A DNA stretch of 64,000 nucleotides, taken from assembly GCA_018287875.1 (NCBI GenBank), contig JAGVVL010000027.1, positions 1,550,001 through 1,614,000 on the forward strand, given 5' to 3'. How positions within the stretch are numbered: position 1 is the stretch's first letter; each line of letters begins with the position of its first letter. Below are positions 16,614-44,381 of this stretch, one piece after another. Below the pieces are notes generated by a model, which was not told where the DNA came from, ran no database searches, and worked only from the letters and a program-made list of their open reading frames with translations. Source of the stretch: Nigrospora sphaerica. Its lineage: Eukaryota; Ascomycota; Sordariomycetes; Amphisphaeriales; Apiosporaceae. Both the position numbers and the translations under genes were made by a program.

Positions 16614-19600
16614 TTAGTGGGTTGCTTCTTCCGTGCTAATCACGACCAGTCGACTCCCTGCTACGATCTTTCGAGCCATCTGTACTATAGGCACGTGAGC
16701 TATAATTTCCAGGACCGATGTCTCGTATTTAAACTCCTTGGTAATCCAGTTCTTCATCTCCACAGCCACGAGAGAGTCAACGCCGTAGGTGTAAAGAGGG
16801 CGACCTTGGTCGATTTCTTCGGCCGGCACCTGTAGGGACCGAGACAAGACCCCAGAGATGGCACCACATACGATGCGTACGCGGTCCTCCGTCGTTTTCG
16901 CGCTCGCTAACTGCTGGCCGGGTGAATCCGTGGCCGCTTGACCGGCGGGCAGAGACGACTTCGGGCGACGGAGGGCGGAGAACTTGGGGTCTTTGGCAAA
17001 GGTGTCGGCCCACTGCCCAGCGTCGGCCTTGAACCCGGCCACGATCTGCGGGTTGGTGGTGCCCTGGTCATCGCCCATCTCCTGGCGGAGGGCCAGAGCT
17101 AACATGGTGTGAAACTCGCTCTCGCCGACAGCCACCGCTTGCCAGCGGGCGGCTACGCCGCCGTCCACAGCAGAAGCGTTCAGGCGGTCGGCGAACATTC
17201 CCACGTCGCGCACCGCCGCGAGGTCCAGGCTAACGGCCTTGAGCCCGCGCGCCCTCCGGTAGTGCGCCAATGCATCCTGGTAGTTGGTGCCGGCGCAGTA
17301 GTTGGCCTGGCCGGGATTCCCGAATATGCCCGAGAAGGAACTGAGCATAACGAAGAAATCCACGTCCCCCTGGAAGAGCTCGTGCAAGTTCCATGATCCC
17401 CGGATCTTAGGCCGCAAAGATTCTTTCCACTGCGCAAATGTCATGTTGGCAAACACGGCATCGTGCAGGACGCTGGCATTCTGTATCACGCCCCGAATGG
17501 GCGGCATCCCTTCTGGCACGGCCTGTACGGCAGCAGCAAGCGCCGCTGCATCGGAGACGTCACACTCGGTAATCCAGATTTGCACCCCGGCCGACTCTAG
17601 CTCCTCCACGAGCCTCTTGGCTTCCGATGACGACGTTCCAGCCCGCGAGAGGTAGCAGAGATACCGGGCACCACAGGCCACAAGAAGCTTCGACATGCTC
17701 CTCCCCAAGCCGCCCAGCCCACCGACAAGTAAATAGGACCGGTCCGGCGCCAGGCGCGCGAGGCTGCTGGCCGTCTTCAGTACCGGCACCGGGATTTCGT
17801 CCTCGAGAGATAGCGTGACTTTCCCCAGGTGTCGGCCCGTCTGGAGCAGTTTGAAGGCGGAGGTGACCTCGGCAAAGGGGAAGGTGACGATGGGGAGGGG
17901 TTTAATGACACCCCGGCGGACCAGATCAAAAGCACCGGCAAAGGCGGCCTCCAGGGCTGGGCGGTCCGAATCCCACATCTCGGCGATATTGATGGCCACG
18001 AAACTGGCGCCGCGCACGAAAGGACGCATCTCGAGCCCGTTGTTATCGAGCCCATCCTTGATGCCCAGCTCGACAAAGGTCCCCAGGGCGCGAGGCAGTT
18101 CCAACTCTCGCGCAGCAGCTCGCCGGCGAGCTGGTTAAGAACACAGTCAACGCCGCGGCCGCCCGTCGCCCGGCGGACGGCAGTGGCGAAGCTAGCGTCC
18201 CGCGAGTGGAGGATGCGGTCGTCGGAGAGGCCGTAGCGGTCGCGGAGCAGCGCGCGCTTGGCCGGCGACCCGGCGGTGGCGAACACGTCGAGCCCCAGGT
18301 GCCGCGCCACCTGCACGGCGCACTGGCCGACGCCACCGCCGGCCGCGTGGATGAGCACCGTCTGTCCCGGCCGCAGCCGCGCTCGCTCCGCCAGCGCGTA
18401 GTAGGCCGTTGTCGCCACCAGCGGCAGCGCTGCGCCCTCGTGGAACGACATGCCCTCCGGGAGCGTCTGGCACGCCGTGGCCGGCACCACCAGCCGCGTC
18501 GCGTGCGCCCCGGGCGCCGTGAAGCAGACTCGATCCCCAGACTTGAGGTCTCGGACCGCACCGCCCGTACGCACTACGAAGCCCGCAGCGTCGCGGCCGA
18601 GAACCTCGTCGGGAAGCTCGCCAAGCGCAGTCATCACGTCTCGGAAACTGGGGCACTCTGGTTAGCAGACGATCCAAACGGTCGGCGATAATAGGGTTAG
18701 GGGCAAAGGAAGAGCAGGATCAGAGACGGGGCAGGACTTACTTCACTCCTGTCGCCTTGATCTCGACCTCAACCTCGTCGTCGCCGAGTAGCGTGATTGG
18801 GCTCCTATCGGCCTCGAAGCGCAGCCCGTCGAGGGTGCCCACGTCCTTGATTCCCAGACGCAGGGGAATGCCGATCTCGCCGGGGAGCGTGGGCACGAGC
18901 CGCGCGGCCGCCACGTCATTGATCTCACGGTTCCAGGCCGGCTGCTCGACGAGGCGCACGACGTGCAGCCGCCCGCCGCGGAGGACGTACTCCATCTCGC
19001 CGGCCTCGGCATCGCGGATGGCGGCGGCCAGGACGCAGCACGCCTCTTTCGTCGTCGCCGGGCCCCCTCGCCCGGAGCGGCGCGTCCCAGGATCTCCGGA
19101 CCCGCGTGCACGGTGCGGAAGGCGAAACCGTCGCGCTCCGACCGCAGCACGCGCGCAACGCCCGTCACCACCGCTGCGGCCGGCCCCTCCAGCGCCGTCA
19201 GCCACCAGATTGGCGCGTCGCCTGCTAGAAGGCGCTGCAGTTTGGCGAAGTCCGCGTCTTCAAGCCGCTCGAGCAAGGCCTCGTCGAGCTCGGCTAGGCA
19301 CACCACGCTTGTCTGGTCGGTGAAGGACGGCAGCGGTTCGTCCCAGCGAAACCTCTGGACTTTGGCCTGCGTATCCGCTTCGAGTGTGCGAGCAAGCTGG
19401 TTTGCGAACGCGCAATCACTCCGCCTCTGGATTATGGCGATGGAGTGACCCGCTGGCTTCGATACTGAATCAGGATCTACCACTGCATCCCTGGACGGTT
19501 CCAGGCTCACGGCCCATTGTTCATCGTCGCTTTGAAGAGAAGTCAGTATGAGAAAACGCCCACGGGAAGCTAGAAGTTTGTGAAGGGACGCGGCCATCCC

Positions 19601-44200: not shown

Positions 44201-44381
44201 GACGACGACGGCGCGACGCCCCGGTGGCGGCCTCCTCGACCAGCCCTCCCTGCCGCGGCGCGCGAACCGCCGCCGCATGGCCTGCTGGCGTATGTTCGCC
44301 GACGTCACCGACCTCTACGGCCAGATCTACGTCCTGCGGGACCTTACTGGCCGTATATTGCCAGCGGCGGAGGGGCAGTAA
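41282..44381 (+). CDS. Bifunctional labdane-type diterpene synthase (class II plus class I)
   Basis: Four exons (41282-42079, 42161-42278, 42361-42646, 42715-44381) give about 956 residues after frame corrections at about 42491, 42722 (C run), 43338 (C run) and 43770 (an 8-C run). The length is that of fungal kaurene, pimaradiene and aphidicolanol synthases. The N-terminal half holds YDTAWLSL, EDGGWDAYGSE and the class II acid motif DADD (42378-42389), which protonates GGPP to a copalyl-type diphosphate. The C-terminal half has the class I metal motif DEFME (43478-43492) and NDFGSVTRD (44025-44051), the second metal site. It should therefore both cyclise and ionise, giving a tri- or tetracyclic hydrocarbon; the exact skeleton cannot be read from sequence. 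Confidence 0.9.

What the first reader, a model, noticed from the sequence alone, without database searches (positions are those of the whole stretch)
16614..44381. Hybrid HR-PKS plus labdane-type diterpene cluster, probably for an acylated diterpenoid
Seen: one 28-kb block holds an HR-PKS, a GGPP synthase, a bifunctional diterpene synthase (DADD and DEFME), three P450s, an SDR and two CAT-superfamily acyltransferases. Known: dedicated GGPP synthase plus cyclase marks a diterpenoid pathway; most fungal diterpene-polyketide hybrids I know use non-reducing PKSs and prenyltransferases, neither of which is here, whereas sordarin-type pathways use an HR-PKS for an ester side chain. Inference: the product is a pimarane/kaurane-like core esterified with a reduced polyketide chain. 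I cannot match this gene set to a named compound.
Basis: partly seen in the sequence, partly recalled or inferred. Interest (0 to 1): 0.88.

Follow-up and report, generated by a model that had tools for sequence, protein, structure and literature searches.

The report
Fungal polyketide-diterpene hybrid gene cluster
A fungal chromosome carries nine adjacent genes that look able to build a ring-shaped diterpene skeleton, oxidise it and attach a polyketide chain; no named product was matched to it, so it is probably a new variant of a known kind of natural-product pathway.

Summary
Window 16.6-44.4 kb holds nine neighbouring biosynthetic genes: HR-PKS, P450a, SDR, AT1, AT2, P450b, P450c, GGPP synthase and a bifunctional diterpene synthase (DTS; DADD, DEFME). 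A pogo/Tc5-type transposon sits between AT1 and AT2; without it they are about 0.4 kb apart. AT2 is a TRI101-like acyltransferase; AT1 matches no family library. The DTS is sister (100/100) to a group with a Pyricularia protein that I equate, by elimination, with MoDiTPS2, a pimara-8(9),15-diene synthase. The PKS is sister to six PKSs of Pyricularia, Colletotrichum and Diaporthe; the two of six with readable locus tags both lie on the contig of a DTS (5 tags away in Pyricularia sp. CBS 133598, 22 in Diaporthe batatas). Those DTSs belong to another clade. So PKS-DTS pairing recurs, here with a different cyclase. Best reading: an oxidised pimarane-like core esterified with an unbranched polyketide chain. 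Against it: a decayed PKS-P450-SDR-AT1 relic stands elsewhere in this genome with no DTS or GGPPS found beside it, so two side-by-side pathways remain possible; five genes show frame breaks, more likely sequencing errors than decay; product and expression are untested.

The parts
16614..24073 (-). Highly reducing PKS: KS-AT-DH-ER-KR-ACP; no C-methyltransferase and no thioesterase seen
   Evidence: Pfam on three pieces; KS and ACP motifs in frames and models; fungal homologues up to 49%
24809..26657 (+). P450a; travels with the PKS in the C10 relic, so probably polyketide tailoring (inferred)
   Evidence: PF00067 on two pieces; 76% DNA match to C10
27031..27810 (+). Short-chain dehydrogenase/reductase, 259 aa, single open exon
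   Evidence: PF00106 6.1e-50
28612..30179 (+). AT1, putative acyltransferase of unassigned family; HVMDG in place of HxxxD
   Evidence: models; no family hit; weak similarity to AT2
30249..32175 (+). pogo/Tc5-type DNA transposon, 45-nt terminal inverted repeats, TA at both ends; inserted between AT1 and AT2
32523..33978 (-). AT2, TRI101-like (CAT/BAHD fold) acyltransferase, HHTLMDG
   Evidence: PF22664 and PF02458; PDB 2zba
34385..36287 (+). P450b, heme motif FGHGTHACPG
   Evidence: PF00067 on two pieces
36835..38608 (+). P450c, heme motif FGYGQHACPG, resembles P450b by eye
   Evidence: PF00067 on two pieces
39064..40253 (-). GGPP synthase, DDVQD and DDYAN motifs
   Evidence: three PF00348 exon hits, two of them over the cut-off; frames
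41282..44381 (+). Bifunctional labdane-type diterpene synthase, DADD (class II), DEFME and NDFGSVTRD (class I)
   Evidence: 262 homologues, exon matches, PDB 9q3i 1.1e-88 for the first exon, tree
45118..46981 (-). Second pogo-like DDE_1 transposon, right border of the block (ends approximate)
9533..15050 (+). LINE-like reverse transcriptase elements, left border of the block

Best explanation
One biosynthetic gene cluster for an acylated, oxidised labdane-type diterpenoid. GGPPS supplies GGPP. The DTS first protonates it at DADD to copalyl diphosphate (normal series predicted), then ionises that at DEFME to a pimaradiene-type hydrocarbon. P450b and P450c oxidise the core. The HR-PKS makes an unbranched, partly reduced chain that P450a and the SDR modify. 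Because no thioesterase or ligase was seen among the gene models, the chain is handed from the carrier domain to a core hydroxyl by AT1, while AT2 adds acetyl or a second acyl group. Shown: gene content, order, motifs, and the family of each enzyme except AT1. Inferred: single pathway, pimarane core, ester link, which AT does what.
For: Nine biosynthetic genes with no other gene model between them; gaps about 0.36-1.0 kb once the transposon is discounted. PKS with KS-AT-DH-ER-KR-ACP hits and nothing after the ACP. In the sister group of the PKS, 2 of 6 members have readable locus tags and both have a bifunctional DTS on a contig of the same length: PspLS_09761/09766 and KVR01_012783/012761. 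Four of six species are shared by that PKS group and that DTS group. DTS sister to the group holding P0002 of P. oryzae 70-15 (100/100), which by elimination is MoDiTPS2, a pimara-8(9),15-diene maker (PMC10512213, parts 1-3 of 4 read). Working analogues: harzianum A (PKS, P450, two acyltransferases), fumagillin, squalestatin (PMC8902786, passages).
Against: Contig C10 holds a decayed PKS-P450a-SDR-AT1 relic in the same order, next to a 555-aa ORF that looks like a regulator by eye, with no DTS or GGPPS seen there (one search agrees but scored only 37 of 821 candidates). The linked DTSs elsewhere belong to another clade. AT1 has no family match. Frame jumps in five genes could be real decay, and the copies on C3 and C27 do not give cleaner P450 or DTS models. 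No regulator or transporter among the gene models of the block. No expression or metabolite data. The MoDiTPS2 cluster text names no PKS, though its authors sorted only oxidases, reductases, transferases and GGPPS.
Confidence: 0.58

Rival explanations
1. Two neighbouring but independent pathways: a polyketide unit (PKS, P450a, SDR, AT1) and a diterpenoid unit (AT2, P450b, P450c, GGPPS, DTS) that happen to abut, with the transposon at the seam.
For: A relic of the first unit alone, same order and orientation, lies on contig C10; a conserved DTS piece hits only C18, C3 and C27. The transposon sits exactly between the units. A survey of fungal diterpene clusters describes DTS, GGPPS and P450 genes; 'PKS' occurs once and 'polyketide' not at all in its text (PMC4617483, passages).
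Against: PKS-DTS linkage in Pyricularia sp. CBS 133598 and, more loosely, Diaporthe batatas; before the insertion AT1 and AT2 were about 0.4 kb apart; the relic may simply have lost its other half.
Confidence: 0.24
2. A decaying, non-producing cluster: frame breaks are real and the locus sits among transposons near a contig end.
For: Frame jumps without introns in DTS, P450a, P450c, AT1 and the PKS 5' end; transposons on both sides and inside; a decayed sister locus on C10; P450 and DTS models are no cleaner in the C3 and C27 copies.
Against: The three assembled copies differ by 119 short indels, 80 of them in homopolymers, but only 8 substitutions over about 69 kb aligned, the pattern of long-read consensus error; motifs are intact; AT1 and AT2 models are longer in the C3 copy (483 against 401 and 493 against 447 residues with the stop).
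Confidence: 0.13
3. A hybrid product joined other than by an ester, or a known compound whose cluster is not in the libraries I could search.
For: No MIBiG or antiSMASH search was possible; AT1 is of unassigned family.
Against: No prenyltransferase or NR-PKS among the gene models; AT2 belongs to an acyltransferase family.
Confidence: 0.05

Closest known systems
Harzianum A trichothecene pathway (Tri17 PKS, Tri23 P450, Tri3 and Tri18 acyltransferases)
   Same: Terpene core plus PKS chain, chain-oxidising P450 and two acyltransferases (PMC8902786, passages); AT2 belongs to the TRI-like family
   Different: Trichothecene core made by a different cyclase; here a labdane-type cyclase and GGPPS
PKS-DTS loci of Pyricularia sp. 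CBS 133598 and Diaporthe batatas (uncharacterised)
   Same: PKS of the sister group and a bifunctional DTS on the same contig
   Different: DTS there groups next to phyllocladanol synthase (MoDiTPS3-like by phylogeny), here with the MoDiTPS2/5 clade; other genes there were not seen
MoDiTPS2 cluster of Pyricularia oryzae (pimara-8(9),15-diene)
   Same: Related DTS, GGPPS and P450s
   Different: No HR-PKS or acyltransferase named in the parts of PMC10512213 read; the authors sorted for a few annotations only
Hypoxysordarin/sordarin (sdn)
   Different: SdnA makes the 5-8-5 hydrocarbon cycloaraneosene (PMC9095873, passages), not a labdane-type product; glycosyltransferase and methyltransferase there, none seen here
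Fumagillin
   Same: PKS chain moved to a terpenoid alcohol by an acyltransferase (PMC8902786, passages)
   Different: Sesquiterpenoid core, other cyclase and acyltransferase families (recalled)

Membership tests
Fungal bifunctional labdane-type diterpene synthase | Class II DxDD motif | tested here: met
   DADD in ADADDTAK, aligned with homologues
Fungal bifunctional labdane-type diterpene synthase | Class I D(D/E)xx(D/E) and NSE-like motifs | tested here: met
   DEFME and NDFGSVTRD aligned with homologues
Fungal bifunctional labdane-type diterpene synthase | Sequence kinship to characterised members | tested here: met
   Tree; PDB 9q3i and 8v0f, named copalyl diphosphate synthase
Fungal bifunctional labdane-type diterpene synthase | Product from GGPP via copalyl diphosphate | not testable with these tools
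   Needs expression and GC-MS
Highly reducing iterative PKS | KS-AT-DH-ER-KR-ACP in one protein | tested here: met
   Pfam hits for KS C-terminal part, AT, DH, ER-type, KR and ACP on three pieces; TACSSG in frame; frame jump near the 5' end
Polyketide-decorated terpenoid cluster (harzianum A/fumagillin kind) | Terpene cyclase, HR-PKS and acyltransferase in one locus | tested here: met
Polyketide-decorated terpenoid cluster (harzianum A/fumagillin kind) | Acyltransferase dedicated to the chain | tested here: inconclusive
   AT2 family met; AT1 unassigned
Polyketide-decorated terpenoid cluster (harzianum A/fumagillin kind) | Genes co-regulated, one product | not testable with these tools
   No expression or metabolite data
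Sordarin-type (sdn) | SdnA-type cycloaraneosene synthase | tested here: not met
   Cyclase is bifunctional labdane type; SdnA described in PMC9095873 (passages)
Sordarin-type (sdn) | Glycosyltransferase and methyltransferase in cluster | tested here: not met
   None among the gene models of 16.6-44.4 kb; not every small ORF was scanned
Diterpenoid pyrone / meroditerpenoid | NR-PKS, prenyltransferase, membrane cyclase (features recalled) | tested here: not met
   None among the gene models

The most novel reading that the evidence does not exclude
One lineage of HR-PKS has been paired again and again with different clades of bifunctional diterpene synthase in Sordariomycetes (Pyricularia, Colletotrichum, Diaporthe and this fungus), so that a whole uncharted class of acylated labdane-type diterpenoids exists, built by swapping cyclases behind a conserved acyl-making unit.
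Probability: 0.35. Interest if true: 0.66.

Novelty: new variant of a known kind. Interest (0 to 1): 0.5.

Why it matters
In the survey whose passages I saw (PMC4617483), fungal labdane-type clusters are described as cyclase, GGPPS and P450s; PKS chains on terpenoids are described there and in PMC8902786 for trichothecenes, fumagillin and meroterpenoids. A conserved HR-PKS/labdane-cyclase pairing would point to a compound class without a name, in genera that include grass pathogens, and it gives simple tests: one deletion each of PKS and DTS. The C10 relic would also let one ask whether hybrid clusters arise by joining ready-made units.

Tried and rejected
Literature: ten searches; no title or abstract start that was listed describes this gene set, one search found nothing, listings were capped, the library holds open-licence papers only, and ten papers were opened (one in three of four parts, nine by passages). 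No MIBiG or antiSMASH comparison could be run. The first PKS search used a fragment and its listed hits were mostly metagenome pieces; repeated with the long model. AT1: Pfam, NCBIfam and PDB gave nothing meaningful; family membership left open. My memory that AT1-like fungal proteins carry a WPHTLMD motif is recall only. Three separate genomic copies: rejected as a claim. C3 repeats window 15190-54533 as far as fetched and also the left flank 5300-9500, with about 7.3 kb more in the LINE zone; C27 repeats 23082-53108 as far as fetched; redundant assembly of one locus is as likely as duplication. LINE as the element between AT1 and AT2: rejected, it is pogo/Tc5-like. Species identity: not established. 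Trees used 46 of the 120 listed DTS hits (262 found) and 30 of the 120 listed PKS hits (7040 found), chosen by me; bacterial PKS rows and most metagenome fragments were dropped. The PKS tree is a quick search without bootstrap, and the window PKS is a long branch.

Full report
What is there. A home-made gene finder with window-trained codon statistics, stop-to-stop frames and Pfam on pieces give nine biosynthetic genes between a LINE-like zone on the left (RVT_1) and a pogo-like element on the right (DDE_1). Order and strand: PKS(-) P450a(+) SDR(+) AT1(+) [transposon] AT2(-) P450b(+) P450c(+) GGPPS(-) DTS(+).

The PKS. Three pieces hit Acyl_transf_1, KAsynt_C_assoc, Ketoacyl-synt_C, PKS_DH_N, KR, PP-binding and zinc-dehydrogenase (enoyl-reductase type) domains. 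KS TACSSG and the carrier GVDSL are visible. The C-terminal piece ends after the carrier domain, with no thioesterase hit. The seven closest fungal full-length PKSs (P0243, P0245, P0247, P0249, P0250, P0253, P0258) carry no methyltransferase domain in their precomputed Pfam lists, and none was hit here, so an unbranched chain is expected (inference). The nearest one with a gene name is StmA of Aspergillus ustus, 46%.

The cyclase. Best matches are Colletotrichum navitas P0001 (51% over 71% of the query) and Pyricularia oryzae 70-15 P0002 (47% over 94%); catalytic motifs are aligned; the closest solved chains, 9q3i and 8v0f, are named copalyl diphosphate synthase (that they are fungal is recalled). 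In a 47-row tree the window DTS is the outermost member of a 15-row group with support 100/100 that includes P0002 and a second P. oryzae group. Shahi et al. (PMC10512213, parts 1-3 of 4 read) state that 70-15 has only MoDiTPS1 (ent-manoyl oxide, sharing ancestry with ent-kaurene synthases) and MoDiTPS2 (normal pimara-8(9),15-diene), that 2 and 5 share a node, and that 3 associates with phyllocladanol synthase. In one search P0014 of P. oryzae sits next to the rows with the protein named phyllocladan-16-alpha-ol synthase, so it fits MoDiTPS3, and P0002 then fits MoDiTPS2. That equation is by elimination; no accession was matched.

Is it one pathway? For: with the gene bounds used, intergenic gaps are 356-1011 bp except AT1-AT2 (2343 bp), where a 1.93-kb transposon with 45-nt terminal inverted repeats and TA ends accounts for the excess. 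So the halves were neighbours before the insertion; outside the copies of this locus its closest relatives are 96% alike (L010, L011). In one search, PKSs of Diaporthe batatas, Colletotrichum somersetense, C. eremochloae, C. zoysiae, Pyricularia sp. CBS 133598 and P. oryzae form a group of six that joins the window PKS and one metagenome protein in an 8-row set (SH-aLRT 100). Locus tags could be read for 2 of these 6; both have a bifunctional DTS on a contig of the same length: PspLS_09761 and PspLS_09766 (contig 1167955), KVR01_012783 and KVR01_012761 (contig 644426). With roughly twelve thousand genes per genome (recalled), a distance of five tags by chance is of the order of one in a thousand; the 22-tag distance is looser. 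Those two DTSs lie in one six-row group (100/100) that shares four of six species with the PKS group. Thus PKS-DTS pairing recurs, but the DTS clade differs from the one in this window.

Against one pathway: contig C10 (about 13.3-24.4 kb) carries a decayed copy of the left half. KS/AT pieces match at 71%, P450a at 75-76%, an SDR piece at 71%; by eye AT1 pieces, another P450 piece and a 555-aa ORF resembling a Zn2Cys6 regulator follow, the last with no Pfam hit. A conserved DTS piece found only C18, C3 and C27 in the whole genome, all 7 candidates scored; the polyprenyl-synthase family gave no C10 hit; the right half gave C10 hits only in its transposons, but one search scored 37 of 821 candidates. 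C10 was read only between 10 and 28 kb. The left half can therefore stand, or has stood, apart from the diterpene half. Hence 0.58 for one hybrid pathway and 0.24 for two abutting ones.

How it would work. Published analogues show the logic: harzianum A needs PKS Tri17, P450 Tri23 and acyltransferases Tri3 and Tri18; fumagillin and squalestatin use acyltransferases to move PKS chains (PMC8902786, passages). Here AT2 is TRI101-like; AT1, which travels with the PKS, is the better candidate for chain transfer (inference). A Hypoxylaceae survey describes a comparable locus with HR-PKS, an aristolochene-synthase-like cyclase, two acyltransferases and three P450s, product unknown (PMC8403587, passages).

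Sequence quality and copy number. As far as fetched, C27 matches 23082-53108 and C3 matches 15190-54533 at 99.5-99.9% identity; over about 69 kb of alignment there are 8 substitutions and 119 short indels, 80 of them in homopolymers. C3 also repeats the left flank 5300-9500. Redundant assembly of one locus and a very recent duplication cannot be told apart. Frame jumps in the window's DTS, P450a, P450c, AT1 and PKS 5' end are most simply consensus errors. Against that, gene models on the C3 and C27 copies are longer only for AT1 and AT2; those for P450b and P450c are no better, the C3 DTS model still holds a wrong-frame stretch, the C27 one is shorter, and no P450a model came out of C3.

Verdict. 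The cluster is real and ordinary in its parts; the combination is unusual and was not met in the listings of the ten paper searches. New variant of a known kind, interest 0.5.

Noticed in passing
G000:C10:13300-24400 (L053, L057): Decayed paralogue of the PKS-P450a-SDR-AT1 half, followed by a 555-aa regulator-like ORF and preceded by a helicase-like ORF near the contig start (both by eye).
   Followed up: partly
G000:C3:20001-60000 and 72380-76575; G000:C27:1-30000: Near-identical assembled copies of this locus; C3 has about 7.3 kb more in the LINE zone. Redundant assembly or recent duplication.
   Followed up: partly
window 29200-29260: AT1 reads HVMDG where AT2 has HHTLMDG, one residue short of HxxxD; the decayed C10 copy has the same PHVM start by eye.
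   Followed up: partly
window 5320-7477: HET (heterokaryon incompatibility) domain gene on the left flank.
   Followed up: no
window 1286-2903: FAD-linked oxidase-like gene (PF01565 just under its cut-off), separated from the cluster by transposons.
   Followed up: no
G000:C9:63069-63803 (L004): Polyprenyl synthase domain inside a 748-aa open frame, possibly a chimeric terpene synthase.
   Followed up: no
P0122: A 375-aa metagenome protein is 84% identical to the PKS over 49% of the fragment searched: a close relative lives in a sequenced sample.
   Followed up: no
window 60784-61224: Low-complexity repeat reading YPTYPTYP on the minus strand.
   Followed up: no
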